DNA of 10,484 bases, taken from assembly GCA_026992695.1 (NCBI GenBank), contig JALWYP010000503.1, positions 1 through 10,484 on the forward strand, written 5' to 3'. The notes below the pieces were generated by a model. It saw only the letters and a program-made list of their open reading frames with translations. It did no database searches and had not been told where the DNA came from. A program made the translations under genes and the position numbers. The DNA comes from Flavobacteriaceae bacterium. Its GTDB lineage: Bacteria; Bacteroidota; Bacteroidia; Flavobacteriales; Flavobacteriaceae. Positions 971-9,722 of the stretch are shown here, one piece after another (within the stretch, counting starts at the first letter, position 1; every line of letters begins with the position of its first letter).

Positions 971-1024
971 TAACAAAGGCGGAAACCGAAAAGCCAAAAA
1001 AGAGTAGGAAAATTAAAACCAATT

Positions 1025-2898: not shown

Positions 2899-3936
2899 AT
2901 GAAAACACCATTTTTAACATTTGTAAATCGGAATAACAGTACGATAACAAACAACATTATTAAACTATTCATTTTTGTAGTTGTAGCAACCCTCTCATTA
3001 TCATCTTGTACGAAAAAAGATACCGATGAAAATCCTCAACAACAAGAAGAAGAACTGCCGGATGGGCAAGCCTTATCACAAAGGTTTATGGAAAACCGTC
3101 TGGAAAAACTACAAACCTTTACCATCGACGGTTCTACCGGAGGAATTGTTACCGGCGAACAAGGAACTAAAATTATTATCCCTGCCGGAGCACTGGGCTT
3201 AAACGGAAGCCCTGTGAGTGGAAACATAGACATTGAACTTATTGAAATTTACACCAAAGAGCAAATGCTCCTAAACAATATGCCTACCAACGGAGAGCGC
3301 CCAAACGGAGATGTAGAAATGATTAAATCCGGTGGAGAATTTTTTATAAACGCTACACAAAATGGCAATCAATTAGAAATTTTATCTCCTATTCAACTTG
3401 CCAGCAAACCAATAGATTTTGGTGATGTAGATCCCGAAATGGCTCTTTTTAAAGGTGGAGAAAATATGGAAGATAACGATAACTGGCAAGAGGACGAATT
3501 TACACAAGTAGGTATGGGAGAAGTGCAAGGAACTAACGGAGAATGGATGGCAAACTACTTAGTAGATTTAAGCTCATTTGGTTGGACAAATTTAGACCGT
3601 TGGTACAATTACAACGGAACATTAACCACTTTAAACATAGATACTCCCGAAGGATATACCGGAAACACTTGCGAAGTGTACCTTAGTTACGACGGAGAAG
3701 CTTCCGGATTGGCAAGAATGGATGTTTACGACGAACAAACCGGTATGTTTACCGAGCACTTTGGAAAAATTCCGGTAGGACAAGAAGTACACATCATCCT
3801 TGTTGCTGAAATTAACGGGGTATTGCATTATACCATACAAGGTACTACCATAACGCAAAATCATATAGAATTAATGCCTGAACCTCAACCGGGAACCGAA
3901 GCAGATCTTTTAGATAGTATCGCAAATCTGCCCTAA
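2899..3936 (+). CDS. Envelope lipoprotein A, paralogue of the next gene
   Basis: This is a 345-residue predicted lipoprotein with a long signal peptide: hydrophobic core 20-36 and lipobox LSSC with Cys37 as the lipidated residue. No alternative ATG lies between the start and the lipobox. After Cys37 comes TKKDTDEN, a lysine/acidic stretch resembling the lipoprotein export signals known from Bacteroidota, so surface display is plausible. Residues about 79-165 form a compact beta-rich domain with GGIVTGEQGT, IIPAGAL, TNGERPNGDVEMIKSGGEFFI and an NGNQLEI stretch. This pattern recurs in Bacteroidota lipoproteins and somewhat resembles ZU5-like folds; I know no assigned biochemical function. An acidic region (about 175-200) and an FGWTNLDRW motif (228-235) precede a C-terminal beta domain. 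The protein aligns over its full length with lipoprotein B. It is bounded by terminators on both sides and has its own promoter-like motif, so it is probably monocistronic. Confidence 0.85.
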   Translation: MKTPFLTFVNRNNSTITNNIIKLFIFVVVATLSLSSCTKKDTDENPQQQEEELPDGQALSQRFMENRLEKLQTFTIDGSTGGIVTGEQGTKIIIPAGALGLNGSPVSGNIDIELIEIYTKEQMLLNNMPTNGERPNGDVEMIKSGGEFFINATQNGNQLEILSPIQLASKPIDFGDVDPEMALFKGGENMEDNDNWQEDEFTQVGMGEVQGTNGEWMANYLVDLSSFGWTNLDRWYNYNGTLTTLNIDTPEGYTGNTCEVYLSYDGEASGLARMDVYDEQTGMFTEHFGKIPVGQEVHIILVAEINGVLHYTIQGTTITQNHIELMPEPQPGTEADLLDSIANLP

Positions 3937-3969
3937 ATATTAGTCGATTAGGTTTGGTTGTTTTGTTGT

Positions 3970-4006
3970 TTATCCCGAAGTATCTTAGTGTGCTTCGGGA
4001 TAATTT
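3970..4006 (+). terminator. Hairpin terminator between the two lipoprotein genes
   Basis: TTATCCCGAAG (3970-3980) pairs perfectly over 11 bp with CTTCGGGATAA (3993-4003) around a 12-base loop. Only three T follow, so termination may be partial. Some read-through from lipoprotein A into lipoprotein B is therefore possible. Confidence 0.7.
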
Positions 4007-4014
4007 AAAAATAC

Positions 4015-4022
4015 TATCTTTA
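4015..4022 (+). promoter_or_regulatory. Possible -7 element of the lipoprotein B operon
   Basis: TATCTTTA matches the Bacteroidota housekeeping -7 consensus TAnnTTTG at all fixed positions but the last. A TTC at 3994-3996, 18 bases upstream, could stand in for the -33 TTG, but it sits inside the terminator stem. A promoter is expected here because a terminator separates the two lipoprotein genes. The implied leader is only about ten bases. The shared GGGTAACA motif is absent here. Confidence 0.3.
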
Positions 4023-4037
4023 GGGTGAAAAATCTTT

Positions 4038-5024
4038 ATGATGAATTCTATAACATATCTTTTTTGTATAAGTGGGTTGTTTCTTTTTATAGCTTGTTCT
4101 TCAAATCACCAAAATTGTGAAGAAGGTTTGCTACAATACCCTAACGCTGAACAAATTTTTAATGGTTCAGAATACCGCCAAAGCTTGCAAGATTGCCGAT
4201 TACCAAAAGTGCAAACTTATACCTTTATGGCTTTTCAAGGAGCCGAAATTATTGGAAATCAAGGCACCATACTTCATGTCAACCCGTTAAGTTTTACAGA
4301 CCTAAACGGAAATATCATCGACGGAGAAATAACACTTTCGCTACTTGAAATGTATAATCCCAGCGATATGATTGCTTGCCAACTTTCTACCAATGGAATA
4401 AACCCTAACGGAACTATTGAACCACTTTTTAGCGAAGGCATTTTTTATATTGAAATTACATTTAATAGTCAGCCGGTTACAATCACAAATCCGGTTTTGC
4501 TTTTTGTGCCTTCTGAATCTAGCGGATTGCCTTTGTCAAAATTTGAGTCGCCTTCTTGTCCCGACCTACTTTGTGAAGTACTTTGGGAAAGACAAAATAA
4601 TGTTGAAGTATTGGAAGAACCGTATGTTACTGCTGCAGGAATTGTTATTCCGGGGTATCGTACCTCAGTTCAATTAACACAAGGGTGGCATAGTATAGCA
4701 AGATATTCAAGCACTCAAAATAAAACCACTGTCTATAATAAAGCTCCTAACGGGTATAATAAAACAAATAGCAATGTGTTTGTTGTTTACAACTCCCCTT
4801 CATTAACCGTTGGTATGTTTCCCTATTTTAGTGAAACCAACAAAGTTTTTTATCAAAATAATCTTCCGGTAGAGCAAGATGCTTCCATCGTGTTTGTTTC
4901 AAAACAAGAAAACCAATTTGTTTTTGCTTCGCAAACCACAACTATTACACCTAATTTGGTAACAGCAACTTTAGATTCTCAAAATTTTAATACGGAAGAA
5001 GAACTTATTAATTCAATAAACTAA
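4038..5024 (+). CDS. Envelope lipoprotein B, divergent paralogue of lipoprotein A
   Basis: This is a 328-residue predicted lipoprotein with a short signal peptide and lipobox FIAC, Cys20 being the lipidated residue. The following SSNHQN is not an acidic export signal, so it may face the periplasm, unlike lipoprotein A. Residues 67-150 align with the beta domain of lipoprotein A: GAEIIGNQGT, DGEITLSLLEMY, STNGINPNGTIEPLFSEGIFYI. The IIPAGAL segment is replaced here by HVNPLSF. The C-terminal halves also align: GWHSIARY corresponds to GWTNLDRW, then PNGY, LPVEQ, TTTITPN and a final TEEELINSI correspond to PEGY, IPVGQ, TTITQN and TEADLLDSI. No enzymatic motif was seen. ATG ATG at 4038/4041 leaves one codon of doubt. 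The stop is 8 bases before the next start, so it is probably the first gene of an operon with the PKD/barrel protein and the CHAT protease. Confidence 0.82.
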   Translation: MMNSITYLFCISGLFLFIACSSNHQNCEEGLLQYPNAEQIFNGSEYRQSLQDCRLPKVQTYTFMAFQGAEIIGNQGTILHVNPLSFTDLNGNIIDGEITLSLLEMYNPSDMIACQLSTNGINPNGTIEPLFSEGIFYIEITFNSQPVTITNPVLLFVPSESSGLPLSKFESPSCPDLLCEVLWERQNNVEVLEEPYVTAAGIVIPGYRTSVQLTQGWHSIARYSSTQNKTTVYNKAPNGYNKTNSNVFVVYNSPSLTVGMFPYFSETNKVFYQNNLPVEQDASIVFVSKQENQFVFASQTTTITPNLVTATLDSQNFNTEEELINSIN

Positions 5025-5032
5025 CTCTAAAA

Positions 5033-7024
5033 ATGAAGCAACTGGGTATAATTTTTTTGGTAGCATTTTTATTTTTAGAAAGCAATATTTTTTCGCAATC
5101 CCCTGTGGTAGATACGCTAAAAAGAGAAGCACCCATTTTTTATAATGCAAACGGAAATCAAGTAACCTTTAAAGCAGAAATGCCCCCGCTAAACCAAATA
5201 GCCGGAGCACCCAAAGCTTTTTATACCTATTTCTGGGAATATGGAGACGGAACCTACAGCGAAAAAGAAAACCCAACCCATAATTACAAAAACACAGGTG
5301 AATATACCGCCCGATTGTGGTCAACCAATAATTACGACAACGGAAAACCACCCGAAAGCCGACCAAAAAAAGTGGTTGTTAATAAGGTTACCGTTGACGA
5401 AGCGTCGGCAGACGATGCAAAAGCTCCGCTTGTAGGAGAAGAAGATATTTACATAAAAACAAACCGAGACCCGCTACCTAATGAAGAACTGGTTTTGGTA
5501 ACCACATACAAAAACCTAAAAAATTATGAAACCGGAGGAAAACTGTACTTGTTTTATAACGACCAAAAGTTTAAAGAGGATAATTTTATTTTAGAAGATA
5601 CACGGATCTATAATGGCGAAGAAATTATAGAAAATCCGAGTGGATTTGCTGTTTTAAAAAAAGAAGATGCCACTAAAACATATTTAGTATCTTCAGATAA
5701 CCTAAAATCTCAATATATTCCGGTTGTTCAAGATAGCACAAACCGACTTGTACTTCCGGCTACGCTTGAAGAATCAAAAAAATTATACCGAAACTACCAG
5801 CTTATAGAGTTTGAAAACATGCAACCCGGAGAAGAACGCACCATTTTTAGAACTTTAAAAACCACTCCCGAGATGCTTAAAGACACCTCGGCAATAGTTA
5901 CATTACGAACCATTTATGTGCCGGATAACAACTACGGAAACCACACCGTAAAAGACACCGAACTGGAAATTGTCACTTCGCATGACCCTAACAAAATGGC
6001 AACTAGCGGGGCTGTTTTAAACTATCGTTTGGTACGCTTTAAACGAATCAAATTTAAAGTACGGTTTCAAAACAACGGAGAAGGTCCGGCTAATACCATT
6101 AAACTGGATGTGGACACCCCTGAAATGTTTGATAAATCTACCCTTGAAATCATTGACACCTATCCAAAAGTGCCTATCTGTCCCAAAGGAAAGGAAGTTA
6201 ATTATTCGTGTATTGATACAAGCTTCAGTAAGGATAAAATCCTGTTTACTTTTAAAAAGATTTACCTGCCCGGTTCCAACCAAAAAAATGTAGTTGAAAG
6301 AGATTCAACCAAAGGATTTGTAAAATACAGCATGAAATTTGGGAAGGATTTTCACAAGCAAAAAACCCGAAGTCGTACCGCCATATATTTCGATAAAAAT
6401 CCGCCTATTTATACCAATTATGCTGTAACACGATTCACTCCTGGATTATCCATTGGTGCCAAAGCAGGGTATATTTTTACACCAAGTTTAAATAATCATC
6501 GTGAGTATATGGCAGGAATTACCCTCTCACCTTTTAAATCGTATAAAGGGTATTTACAAGCCGAGTTTTTTATCTCGGCAAACTCCTTTGATGAACTTAA
6601 AAACTTTGAAACCATTAACATTAACGACATAGGAATTGAAGAAATCACCCGCTTTACCGAAAAAAATAAAGAAAACGGCATCACAGCTTATTTGGTGCCG
6701 GCATCCTACCGATACAACCTGAATAACTTTCTTGCTGTGGGAGGCGGATTGCAATTAAAACTGGATTTACAAAGTAAATGCTTAAAACAAACTTCGGGAG
6801 AGACATACCTTATTATTCCCGGAGTAGGAGAAATACGGGACGAAACCAACGACACCTATCAAGAAACCGAATGTAACAGCAGTTTTACCAATTTTCAAAC
6901 CGGCGTTTTTGTAGGTCTCAATGTAGGAGGAGTGAGAATTGGTCCCAGTGTAGGCGTGCGATACGTTCAAAATTTTAATGCACCTACTTCGCAAATTCAA
7001 GTCTATGGCATTTGGAAGTTCTAA
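5033..7024 (+). CDS. PKD plus DUF11-like protein with predicted C-terminal outer-membrane barrel
   Basis: This is a 663-residue exported protein. Residues 1-22 are a signal peptide (hydrophobic core, FSQ near 20-22). Residues about 40-118 form a PKD domain with the hallmark FWEYGDG (67-73) and an NPTHNYKNTGEYTA segment. Residues 316-462 match the DUF11-like conserved repeat domain of Bacteroidota surface proteins: SHDPNKM (316-322), VRFQNNGEGPAN (343-354), and AIYFDKNPPIYTN (450-462). In secreted proteins this domain usually precedes a T9SS sorting tail. Here no such tail exists; instead about 195 residues (468-663) follow with alternating hydrophobic, glycine-rich strands (GLSIGAKAGYIF, FLAVGGGLQLKL, VGGVRIGPSVGVRY) ending in WKF, as in outer-membrane beta-barrels with a terminal aromatic residue. 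The likely location is the outer membrane with the PKD part on one side; which side is unknown. Two stops in tandem (TAATAA) end it. The CHAT gene starts inside its 3' end. Confidence 0.85.
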   Translation: MKQLGIIFLVAFLFLESNIFSQSPVVDTLKREAPIFYNANGNQVTFKAEMPPLNQIAGAPKAFYTYFWEYGDGTYSEKENPTHNYKNTGEYTARLWSTNNYDNGKPPESRPKKVVVNKVTVDEASADDAKAPLVGEEDIYIKTNRDPLPNEELVLVTTYKNLKNYETGGKLYLFYNDQKFKEDNFILEDTRIYNGEEIIENPSGFAVLKKEDATKTYLVSSDNLKSQYIPVVQDSTNRLVLPATLEESKKLYRNYQLIEFENMQPGEERTIFRTLKTTPEMLKDTSAIVTLRTIYVPDNNYGNHTVKDTELEIVTSHDPNKMATSGAVLNYRLVRFKRIKFKVRFQNNGEGPANTIKLDVDTPEMFDKSTLEIIDTYPKVPICPKGKEVNYSCIDTSFSKDKILFTFKKIYLPGSNQKNVVERDSTKGFVKYSMKFGKDFHKQKTRSRTAIYFDKNPPIYTNYAVTRFTPGLSIGAKAGYIFTPSLNNHREYMAGITLSPFKSYKGYLQAEFFISANSFDELKNFETININDIGIEEITRFTEKNKENGITAYLVPASYRYNLNNFLAVGGGLQLKLDLQSKCLKQTSGETYLIIPGVGEIRDETNDTYQETECNSSFTNFQTGVFVGLNVGGVRIGPSVGVRYVQNFNAPTSQIQVYGIWKF

Positions 7025-9722
7025 TAAAGACCTGAAAGACCTGCGGGTTTTCTGCCAAAAGCAGACAAGTAAAAACCTACTAGGTTTTATAGAAGACCTA
7101 CTAGGTTTTAGAAACCTAGTAGGTCTAAAATCCATTATACTATTATTTTTTTTAACAGGAATTTTTTCCGTAGCTACTGCACAACCTTCCGAAACCGATT
7201 TGTGGTATCAAAAACTGGATTCTTTTCTTATAAAACCTACTGCTGAAAACCTTACTAAGCTCGAAAAGGAAATTCTTATCTTAAAAGCATCTTCTTCCGA
7301 AACAAAACTAGCCCGAGTAATCACCTATTGTAACATTGGGTATTATGCACAAAAATACAACCGGTTAACCGAAAGCATAGCTTATTACGAAAAAGCAAAA
7401 TCGGTTTTTTTTAACCAAAAACTTTCAGATTATGATATCATTGAGTACTGCCTAAAACCCTTAGGAAATCTTTACACACAAATCAATGCCTTGTCGGAAG
7501 CCGAAAATACCATTAAACACTATCTCTTACTTGCTCAAAAGCAAGGAAGTAAACTCCAAGAAGCTTCGGCATTACTCAATTTGTCTATTGTTTATAAAAG
7601 TCTGGGGCGCTACGACAAAGCCATTACTTTATTACAACAAGCACAAGTCTTAAACCCGAACAATCTGTTTATTCATCTTCAACTATCCGAAAATTATATT
7701 AAAAAAGAAAAATTTTCTCGTGCCGAAATCTTATTAAAAAAAGCAGAAAGTCAATCCCCTAAATTTTCAAAAACCTATTTGTTATTGGCAGAAATAGCCT
7801 ATAAAAACAAACACTATCAAAAAGCCGAAGCATTTTATAAAAAAGCAATCGCACTTCAACAACAAAATCCAAAAACTTCTCGAAGAGAACTTGCTAAAAC
7901 GTATTTGTCATTGGCAAAAGTGCAATTGGATAAAAGTGATTTCTCTCGTTCAAGCGAGAATATAACCAAAACCTATCAAACTCTAATTCCCGCGTTTTCC
8001 AATCATCAACTTATCCCTGAAAAAAATCAGTTATTTGCCGAAAACACTTTGTTGGATGCACTGGACGTTCAAGCTCGGTTGTTTACTCTTCAAAACCAAC
8101 CGGATAAAGCTATTTTAAGCTACCAACGAGCCAATGAAGTATCCCGTTTATTAATCTCTCAAGCCACATTACGTCAATCTAAAATAAATCCGCAAACCCA
8201 ACGTAAAAACCGGTTTGAAAAAATGTTAAGACTCATATATGAGCAATACCAAACCACAAAAGATACTCGCCTGCTACAAAAAGCATTAACTATTGACGCC
8301 GAAAGTAAATCGTTTGTGGTAAATGAAAACCAACGCTTGTTAAACCGCTTAAAAAAACACCTGTCTGACAGTTTGGTCAAGCAATATTTTAAAATAAATA
8401 CACGGTTAGAAAAAATTAAAACCCGATTAGAAACCTTACAATCAACTCACTTTTCGCAACCCGATTCACTTTTAAAATGGCAAAAAAATTATTCGGGTTT
8501 GCTTACCCGGCAACGAACTATCCTCAGGAAAATTAAAGACAAATATCCTGTTGATTCTTCGGTTGTTGGTGTGGTTTCGTTAGAAAAAATTCAACAAAAA
8601 CTTCAAAAATCCAACCAAACGGTAGTGAGTTATTTTTTTGGGACAAACCAAGTGTTTCAATGGATAATAGACGAAAAAAACGTTGTTTTTAATCGAATTA
8701 TTTCTCAAAAAAAAGAACGGGACAGTTTGTTTGATTTATGCGTAAAAATGAACGCCTTTTTTACAAATGCTTCCGAAATAAACAACCATCCGCAAACATA
8801 TTTTACAACGGCACATCAATTATTTACGCGGTTAAACCTTCCTGAGAAAGAAAAAATTACACTCATTCCCGACGGAATTTTATCCTTCATTCCGTTTGAT
8901 GCGTTGGTAACCCATTCGGTTGAAACCTTTGATTACGATAGGGTTCCGTTTTTGGTGAAACAAAGTGAGATGAGTTATCGTCTTTCGGTAAGCAATTTAG
9001 TTGAAGAAGAAAATTTACCTGTGGAAGCCACTACCATTCTGGGAGTTTTTCCGCAGTTTAAAAATTCAGATAAAGAATTAACCTACAGCTTACAAGAAGC
9101 CGAGGTTATTGCATCTCGGTTTCAATCAAAATTATTAAAAAATAAAAACGCAACGGCTCAAAAGTTTTTAAACTACGCCTCTAATTTTGATGTAATTCAC
9201 CTTTCTACACACGCTCGCGGCGGAACATTTACCACACCACCGGCAATTGAATTTATTAACGGAGAGCTTTCGGTAAACTCGTTATACGGCTTACAATTAA
9301 ACACACATTTAGTGATTTTAAGTGCTTGTGAAACCGGCGTAGGAAAATTAATTAAAGGAGAAGGAGTTATAAATTTAGCAAGAGGATTTAATTATGCCGG
9401 AGTACAGCAAGTGTTGTTTACTTTATGGAATGTAAACGATTATGCAACGGCACAAATAATGCAAGGTTTTTATAAAAACCTTTCTGATAATATGCCTTCA
9501 ACCCAAGCATTAACGCTTTCAAAAAGAGCTTACATTAAAGATAAGAATATTGAAAACAATAAAAAATCGCCTTTTTATTGGGCGAGCTTCGTGTATTACG
9601 GAAAACCGGTTTTGGTAAAAAGCAAAACTATACTTACTTGGCAATGGGCGTTGCTTTTAAGTGTTTTATTCGGTGTTTTAATACTTCTTTGGCTTAAGCG
9701 TTTATATAACCGCAATCGATAA
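7005..9722 (+). CDS. TPR-CHAT caspase-like protease, exported and membrane-anchored
   Basis: This is a predicted cysteine protease of the CHAT (clan CD, caspase/separase-like) family. Numbering is from ATG 7005 (905 residues). TPR-type helical repeats cover about 103-391, a charged helical linker about 376-526, and the CHAT domain about 540-870. The domain contains the family block PDGILSFIPFDAL (622-634), the catalytic His736 in HLSTHA, and the catalytic Cys775 in LSACETG; both residues are intact. Unusually, a Sec signal peptide (about 42-59, ATA before Gln60) precedes the repeats, and one transmembrane helix (879-897) with a basic tail (KRLYNRNR) ends the protein. The protease should therefore sit in the periplasm, anchored in the inner membrane. 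The start is uncertain: in-frame ATGs exist only at 6978 and 7005, both inside the upstream gene, and residues 9-41 are encoded by a palindromic repeat cluster. Operon position suggests work with the PKD/barrel protein and lipoprotein B. Its protein substrate is unknown. Confidence 0.88.
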   Translation: MAFGSSNKDLKDLRVFCQKQTSKNLLGFIEDLLGFRNLVGLKSIILLFFLTGIFSVATAQPSETDLWYQKLDSFLIKPTAENLTKLEKEILILKASSSETKLARVITYCNIGYYAQKYNRLTESIAYYEKAKSVFFNQKLSDYDIIEYCLKPLGNLYTQINALSEAENTIKHYLLLAQKQGSKLQEASALLNLSIVYKSLGRYDKAITLLQQAQVLNPNNLFIHLQLSENYIKKEKFSRAEILLKKAESQSPKFSKTYLLLAEIAYKNKHYQKAEAFYKKAIALQQQNPKTSRRELAKTYLSLAKVQLDKSDFSRSSENITKTYQTLIPAFSNHQLIPEKNQLFAENTLLDALDVQARLFTLQNQPDKAILSYQRANEVSRLLISQATLRQSKINPQTQRKNRFEKMLRLIYEQYQTTKDTRLLQKALTIDAESKSFVVNENQRLLNRLKKHLSDSLVKQYFKINTRLEKIKTRLETLQSTHFSQPDSLLKWQKNYSGLLTRQRTILRKIKDKYPVDSSVVGVVSLEKIQQKLQKSNQTVVSYFFGTNQVFQWIIDEKNVVFNRIISQKKERDSLFDLCVKMNAFFTNASEINNHPQTYFTTAHQLFTRLNLPEKEKITLIPDGILSFIPFDALVTHSVETFDYDRVPFLVKQSEMSYRLSVSNLVEEENLPVEATTILGVFPQFKNSDKELTYSLQEAEVIASRFQSKLLKNKNATAQKFLNYASNFDVIHLSTHARGGTFTTPPAIEFINGELSVNSLYGLQLNTHLVILSACETGVGKLIKGEGVINLARGFNYAGVQQVLFTLWNVNDYATAQIMQGFYKNLSDNMPSTQALTLSKRAYIKDKNIENNKKSPFYWASFVYYGKPVLVKSKTILTWQWALLLSVLFGVLILLWLKRLYNRNR
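7029..7126. repeat. Palindromic GACCTACTAGGTTTT-type repeat cluster
   Basis: The cluster contains two units starting GACCTG (7029, 7038), the second being GACCTGCGGGTTTT, then a small hairpin TCTGC/GCAGA (7051-7055 with 7061-7065). Next is a 17-base palindrome AAAACCTA-C-TAGGTTTT (7072-7088). Last is a perfect 15-bp stem, AGACCTACTAGGTTT (7094-7108) with AAACCTAGTAGGTCT (7112-7126), around a 3-base loop. ACCTACTAGGTTTTA occurs at 7075-7089 and 7096-7110, 21 bases apart. Similar short palindromes of the GACCT...AGGTC type are, to my knowledge, common between genes in Flavobacteria. There is no T-tract, so this is not a terminator. It lies within the open frame of the CHAT gene, where it can be read as LLGFIEDLLGF and similar. 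No other copy occurs in the window. Confidence 0.85.

What the first reader, a model, noticed from the sequence alone, without database searches (positions are those of the whole stretch)
7005..7190. Palindromic repeat cluster sits in frame at the 5' end of the CHAT protease gene and seems to have removed its start codon
Seen: after the upstream stop, a repeat cluster (7029-7126) fills the space up to the codons for KSIILLFFLTG, an ideal signal-peptide beginning. The codon where a Met would be expected before that Lys is CTA (7125-7127), formed by the end of the 15-bp hairpin. No ATG, GTG or TTG lies in frame between 7008 and the predicted cleavage site; the only in-frame ATGs are 6978 and 7005, inside the preceding gene. 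Inference: a mobile palindromic element inserted at the gene start without breaking the frame. The product would then carry an unusually long repeat-encoded leader (LLGFIEDLLGF and similar), or use a non-standard start, or be poorly made. The hairpin could also control translation of a protease.
Basis: partly seen in the sequence, partly recalled or inferred. Interest (0 to 1): 0.75.

Follow-up and report, generated by a model that had tools for sequence, protein, structure and literature searches.

The report
Mobile hairpin repeat inside a signal peptide
A small mobile hairpin repeat that normally sits just behind genes lies where two genes overlap, so it probably now encodes a variable extension at the front of an exported protease-like protein; the start codon was probably not lost but lies earlier, inside the neighbouring gene, and the case is a good new example of a known kind of event.

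Summary
The palindromic cluster is real: a degraded 52-nt unit (7037-7088) and an intact 33-nt hairpin (7094-7126) of a dispersed repeat. The family looks like REPINs. In the same genus 58 of 61 copies examined are intergenic, with 24 convergent against 1 divergent neighbour pair. Four of five RAYT-type transposase genes without internal stops, in three related genomes, have family palindromes on both sides; one pair differs from 7094-7126 only in the loop. No RAYT was found in the window's own, incomplete genome.

No ATG, GTG or TTG lies in frame between 7005 and the signal-peptide core. Yet two sister loci (90% identity) with other repeat states (stop-to-core 28 and 64 nt, against 103 here) keep the one open frame back to ATG 7005. 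Repeat-free orthologues L084, L089, L091 and L092 have their open frame from the homologous overlapping ATG. dN/dS is 0.20-0.28.

Best reading: a REPIN at its usual place just behind a stop codon became coding because the next gene starts inside the previous one. Start removal is not supported. A P-type ATPase linker shows similar in-frame copies in three genomes, one decayed.

The parts
5033..7024 (+). Upstream gene: PKD, DUF7619 and DUF7849 domains, ends YGIWKF*
   Evidence: ORF, Pfam; a gene ending WKF* lies next to the CHAT gene in 41 of 56 loci
6978..6980 (+). In-frame ATG, alternative start, inside the upstream gene
   Evidence: present in all three repeat-bearing loci
7005..7007 (+). 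In-frame ATG, most likely start of the CHAT gene, overlapping the end of the upstream gene by 20 nt
   Evidence: three loci; homologous start position with open frame in L084, L089, L091, L092, L087, L039
7005..9722 (+). TPR-CHAT gene, 905 aa if started at 7005
7029..7034 (+). Short fragment resembling half a repeat arm, shared by all three loci
   Evidence: own reading; alignment
7037..7088 (.). 52-nt palindromic unit with degraded left arm and asymmetric core
   Evidence: same layout at L033 and in other copies
7094..7126 (.). Intact 33-nt hairpin unit, 15-bp arms 7094-7108 and 7112-7126
   Evidence: differs only in the loop from the pair flanking the RAYT gene in L213
7128..7181 (+). Signal-peptide core KSIILLFFLTGIFSVATA; cleavage point by own reading, no predictor was available
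8841..9602 (+). CHAT domain (residues 572-825 counted from 7128)
   Evidence: Pfam PF12770, E 2.9e-48

Best explanation
The cluster is a small array of REPIN-like elements (inverted pairs of roughly 15-nt palindromes) of a family that in this genus is associated with RAYT transposases. Such elements usually sit a few nucleotides behind a stop codon. Here the start of the TPR-CHAT gene overlaps the end of the upstream gene, so an element in its usual place fell into the downstream reading frame. It now encodes part of the n-region of the signal peptide, translated from ATG 7005. The only open frame through the repeat has been kept in three species although units were gained, lost or decayed. 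Shown by sequence: the repeat family, its placement bias, RAYT association in relatives, frame-keeping variation, purifying selection downstream. Inferred: use of ATG 7005, translation through the hairpin, RAYT as the mover, and export with the long n-region.
For: Paired repeat found in 8 of 19 genomes of the genus and 22 of 99 relatives, controls 0 in all 99. 58 of 61 copies intergenic; 24 convergent, 30 co-directional, 1 divergent (convergent against divergent p 1.5e-6); median 12 nt behind the upstream stop in the 30 co-directional cases; by the same measure the first unit here is 15 nt behind it (own count). RAYT genes in 4 of 19 genomes, all among the 8 with the repeat; 4 of 5 RAYT loci without internal stops are flanked on both sides by family palindromes. 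Three loci with stop-to-AAATCC lengths of 103, 28 and 64 nt, all 1 mod 3, each with exactly one open frame, always the CHAT frame. dN/dS 0.20-0.28. Homologous overlapping ATG with an open frame in repeat-free L084, L089, L091, L092. P0001, whose first residues match L031, was called from this ATG in a public source. Independent in-frame copies in a P-type ATPase linker.
Against: No RAYT or Y1 transposase found in the window's own genome nor a RAYT in G003, though both genomes are incomplete (83% and 78%). Only 6 strict pairs in the own genome, few for a REP family. The ATG triplet is partly forced by the upstream Tyr codon TAT followed by G, so its conservation alone proves little. P0002, 91% identical, was called from a later start beyond the signal peptide. 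25 of 41 loci start after the upstream stop and 7 at another overlapping codon. Three lengths equal mod 3 would happen by chance in 1 of 9 cases. The G005 gene is seen in two contig pieces. A 41-residue stretch before the core lysine is long for a signal peptide.
Confidence: 0.7

Rival explanations
1. Non-standard start: translation begins at a rare codon near the core (ATT 7134, or CTG 7032/7041), and the repeat is mostly untranslated or only partly translated.
For: CTG 7032 and ATT 7134 are present in all three loci. 25 of 41 loci start after the upstream stop. A start near the core would give a signal peptide of usual length.
Against: The CHAT frame stays open through three different repeat states, which a start near 7134 would not require. 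Rare start codons are exceptional (general knowledge). Orthologues with the overlapping ATG exist.
Confidence: 0.14
2. Start at ATG 6978, giving a leader nine residues longer than from 7005; otherwise as the best explanation.
For: ATG 6978 is in frame in all three loci.
Against: The loci L084, L089, L091 and L092 show the 20-nt overlap corresponding to 7005; whether they have an ATG matching 6978 was not tabulated.
Confidence: 0.08
3. The start codon was truly lost by the insertion and the gene is decaying or silent.
For: No start codon adjoins the core in any of the three loci; the ancestral start is not known.
Against: dN/dS 0.20-0.28 along the gene, including 0.28 in the first 30 codons though on few sites; no internal stop or frameshift in the two complete sequences.
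Confidence: 0.05
4. A +1 frameshift at the upstream stop fuses the two genes.
For: The CHAT frame is +1 to the upstream frame and open there (own reading).
Against: It would place a signal peptide in mid-protein behind a protein end conserved as WKF*; most loci have separate starts.
Confidence: 0.02

Closest known systems
REPINs/REPs with RAYT (TnpA-REP) transposases, in particular Bacteroidetes subclass 2.6 (RAYT group 5) with atypical palindromes lacking the GTAG foot (PMC6006769 and PMC3116915, passages seen)
   Same: Short palindromes in inverted pairs forming hairpins, dispersed, mostly intergenic, and flanking RAYT genes of relatives
   Different: This array is coding; few strict copies and no RAYT seen in the own genome; the RAYT subclass was not determined here
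Intragenic REPs in frame in genes of several species (PMC3733652, passages seen)
   Same: In-frame copies within genes; family mainly behind genes, between convergent or co-directional ORFs
   Different: Here the copy lies in the n-region of a signal peptide at an overlapping gene junction, with three repeat states in three species
Rickettsia palindromic elements, RPE (PMC10969869 and PMC3733652, passages seen)
   Same: Palindromic element read in frame as part of proteins presumed functional
   Different: RPEs are about 150 bp with a conserved encoded peptide; these units are 33 or 52 nt and are read in different frames at the two loci
Overlapping gene pairs in which the downstream start lies in the upstream gene (here the WKF*-gene/CHAT pair)
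   Same: 9 of 41 loci with the pair have an open frame from the ATG with 20-nt overlap, 7 of 41 from the (A/T)TG with 13-nt overlap
   Different: Among these loci the family repeat was recognised only in the window and its two sister loci (own reading); L087 has another, unrelated long leader

Membership tests
REPIN/REP system with RAYT | Short palindromic repeats occurring as inverted pairs | tested here: met
REPIN/REP system with RAYT | Mostly extragenic, behind genes, avoiding divergent gaps | tested here: met
   58 of 61 intergenic; 24 convergent, 30 co-directional, 1 divergent; ORF heuristic, not annotation
REPIN/REP system with RAYT | High copy number in the genome | tested here: inconclusive
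   4 to 40 strict pairs per genome in the 8 of 19 genomes with the repeat, 6 in the own genome; single cores 43 against 9 control
REPIN/REP system with RAYT | RAYT gene flanked by cognate repeats | tested here: inconclusive
   Met in relatives: 4 of 5 RAYT loci without internal stops. No RAYT found in the own incomplete genome. The proteins match NCBIfam NF047646 below its cut-off (46 and 51 bits against 80)
Canonical GTAG REP | GTAG tetranucleotide at the foot of the hairpin | tested here: not met
   Arms begin AGACCT; GTAG occurs only inside the arms of the ACTAG subtype (own reading). Feature as stated in PMC3733652 and PMC6006769
Bacteroidetes RAYT subclass 2.6 | Phylogenetic placement of the RAYT protein in subclass 2.6 | not tested
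   No reference sequences at hand
Rickettsia palindromic elements | Inserted in frame within protein-coding genes | tested here: met
Rickettsia palindromic elements | About 150 bp with a conserved encoded peptide | tested here: not met
   33- and 52-nt units; different peptides at the CHAT and ATPase loci

The most novel reading that the evidence does not exclude
The arrival of the REPIN moved the gene from one overlapping start to another in a different frame (from a codon matching TTG 7012, the position of the MEIL/LEIL starts of many relatives, to ATG 7005), and the repeat now works as a length-variable, frame-preserving signal-peptide leader that tunes how much of the protease-like protein is made or exported.
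Probability: 0.12. Interest if true: 0.65.

Novelty: new member of a known kind. Interest (0 to 1): 0.42.

Why it matters
It explains a start codon that seems to be missing, and shows how the behind-the-stop habit of REPIN-like elements can turn into new coding sequence where genes overlap. It also warns that gene callers disagree at such junctions: P0001 and P0002, 87% and 91% identical to the window's protein, were called from different starts. Three natural leader versions (28, 64 and 103 nt) make the effect of repeat-encoded n-regions on expression and export directly testable.

Tried and rejected
Rfam at gathering thresholds: no family covers the repeat; the one hit is DUF805b at 976-1010. 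Pfam Y1_Tnp in the own genome: none. In the genus, 5 of 19 genomes have a Y1_Tnp match, all among the 8 with the repeat (Fisher p 0.005); but 7 of the 8 Y1_Tnp loci inspected (of 14 listed matches) carry no family palindromes, so IS200-type TnpA is not the obvious partner; the RAYT-type genes are.

Three of 61 copies overlap ORFs. Two (L164, L174) I read as lying before the true starts of metG-like and murF-like genes (gene names by own recognition, no search). Only the L171 copy is read as coding. Gene context rests on an ORF heuristic (at least 100 aa, longest first). The 60 regions were 36 of G012's 40 copies, 10 of 10 in G005, 10 of 10 in G011 and 4 places in G000; none from G003, G008, G009 or G015. 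Repeated contexts and copies within 250 bases of a stretch end were dropped before the count of 61; one G000 copy (L186) fell out that way, and the window's own cluster is not among the 61.

L087 (G335) has a long leader behind the same overlapping ATG, but the insert is not a copy of this repeat and has only weak partial matches in its genome; unexplained. In one search the figure '128 copies' is inflated by counting adjacent match positions and is not used.

I looked for nearer repeat-free orthologues with DNA: 397 and 394 genomes (two candidates scored per genome), none above 39% identity outside the two sister species. P0003-P0006 (50-67%) are known as proteins only, so the ancestral start is undecided. 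11 of the 18 proteins P0003-P0020 begin (M/L)E(I/V)L, which upstream WKF* codons would dictate.

Papers: searches (listings and abstract starts seen) and passages of five papers. None of these listings showed a report of REPs in signal peptides or of this repeat in this gene; only open-licence papers are held.

Full report
WHAT IS THERE. Between the stop codon of a PKD-DUF7619-DUF7849 gene (5033-7024) and the hydrophobic core of a TPR-CHAT protein (from 7128) lie two palindromic units. The first is a 52-nt form with a degraded left arm (7037-7088). The second is an intact 33-nt hairpin (7094-7126) with 15-bp arms and a 3-nt loop. The region folds far better than shuffles (z -4.6).

THE REPEAT FAMILY. 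The window lies in a genome of 2.29 Mb in 547 contigs, 83% complete; its nearest named loci are MAGs labelled Flavobacteriaceae. The core ACCTNNNAGGT occurs 43 times there against 9 for the reversed control. The paired form occurs in 22 of 99 related genomes, 8 of 19 in the genus with 4 to 40 copies each, and the control was 0 in all 99. Two layouts recur: a 33-nt form, and a form of about 52 nt with an asymmetric core.

PLACEMENT. Of 61 copies examined with flanks, 58 are intergenic by an ORF heuristic. Neighbouring ORFs are convergent in 24, co-directional in 30 and divergent in 1; in 3 a neighbour is missing on one side. Convergent and divergent gaps should be about equally common, so the skew is strong (p 1.5e-6). 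In the 30 co-directional cases the median distance is 12 nt to the upstream stop and 33.5 nt to the next ORF start; the stop is nearer in 25, with 1 tie. By the same measure the first unit here is 15 nt behind the stop (own count). This is the habit of REPs described in PMC3733652 (passages seen).

THE MOVER. A model from three RAYT-like proteins found matches in 4 of 19 genomes of the genus, all four among the 8 with the repeat. Of six matches one has internal stops. Of the five others, four have family palindromes close on both sides, each locus with its own subtype: AACAG in L209 and L210, ACAA/GCAA in L211, ACTAG in L213. The fifth, L212, has an unrelated palindrome. The L213 open frame has no ATG near its beginning, so its start is uncertain. 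The L213 pair differs from the window's 33-mer only in the loop. No such gene was found in the window's own genome or in G003; both are incomplete. PMC6006769 (passages seen) describes a Bacteroidetes RAYT subclass with atypical, non-GTAG palindromes; I did not test whether these proteins belong to it.

THE LOCUS IN RELATIVES. Two sister loci have 90% protein identity: L031 (genome G003) and L033 (genome G005). All three share the flanks but differ in repeats: the lengths from stop to AAATCC are 103, 28 and 64 nt. Each is 1 mod 3, which chance would give in 1 of 9 cases. In each exactly one of three frames is open, always the CHAT frame. Both ATGs are in frame in all three. The gene evolves under purifying selection: dN/dS 0.28 (G000-G003), and 0.22 and 0.20 for the two contig pieces of the G005 gene. 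The genus search found the upstream gene in the same 3 of 19 genomes only.

THE START. In 41 of 56 homologous loci (not deduplicated) a gene ending WKF* lies just upstream. In 9 the CHAT frame is open from an ATG that overlaps the upstream gene by 20 nt; three of these are the repeat-bearing loci. In 7 it is open from an (A/T)TG overlapping by 13 nt; L104, L107 and L108 of these also have a later ATG. In 25 the start is after the stop. L084, L089, L091 and L092 are free of this repeat and have the 20-nt overlap followed directly by a signal peptide; L039 has a later ATG, and L087 has an unrelated long leader. So ATG 7005 is an ordinary kind of start for this gene family. The ATG is partly forced by the upstream codons TAT-G, so the evidence is the open frame behind it rather than the triplet. 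Public gene calls disagree: P0001 starts at this ATG, P0002 beyond the signal peptide.

A SECOND CASE. In a CopA-like P-type ATPase the linker behind the first metal-binding domain carries an in-frame 33-nt copy in G005, a decayed copy in G003, and a different subtype in one G015 gene; five of eight loci, including the one in G000, have none. So in-frame copies in tolerant protein segments have arisen more than once in this genus.

MECHANISM. The simplest account is that an element of a RAYT-associated family arrived at its usual spot just behind a stop codon. Because the next gene starts inside the upstream gene, the element became coding, and selection on the CHAT protein removed versions that closed the frame. 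Arrival by RAYT, translation through the repeat and export with the long n-region are inferred. The hairpin's strength is not conserved (z -5.3 in the window, -0.14 and -0.91 in the sisters), which argues against a selected regulatory role. A bolder reading, that the insertion switched the gene from one overlapping start to another, fits the frame relation between TTG 7012 and ATG 7005 (own reading) and the MEIL/LEIL-type starts of 11 of the 18 proteins P0003-P0020, but DNA of the nearest of them is missing.

VERDICT. In-frame REPs and RPEs are already described (PMC3733652, PMC10969869; passages seen), so this is a new, well-documented member of a known kind, in an unusual position.

Noticed in passing
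window 976-1010 (+): Rfam match to DUF805b RNA (RF02914, 49.5 bits against a cut-off of 35.6), just upstream of the gene at 1025, which carries a Por secretion tail.
   Followed up: no
window 2899-5024 (+): Two genes with lipoprotein-like starts and no Pfam match precede the PKD/CHAT pair in the same direction; possibly one operon with the Por-tail gene at 1025.
   Followed up: no
L199 (G005), L200 (G003), L203 (G015): In-frame copies of this repeat family in the linker of a CopA-like P-type ATPase, of two different subtypes, absent in five other loci.
   Followed up: partly
L087 1319-1460 (G335): Another long leader, GC-rich and hairpin-like, behind the same overlapping ATG of a distant CHAT orthologue; not this repeat, with only weak partial matches in its genome.
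   Followed up: partly
L212 / L198 (G005:C150): A RAYT-like gene flanked by a quite different palindrome (TTCACACCGTGACT type), suggesting a second REP system in the genus.
   Followed up: no
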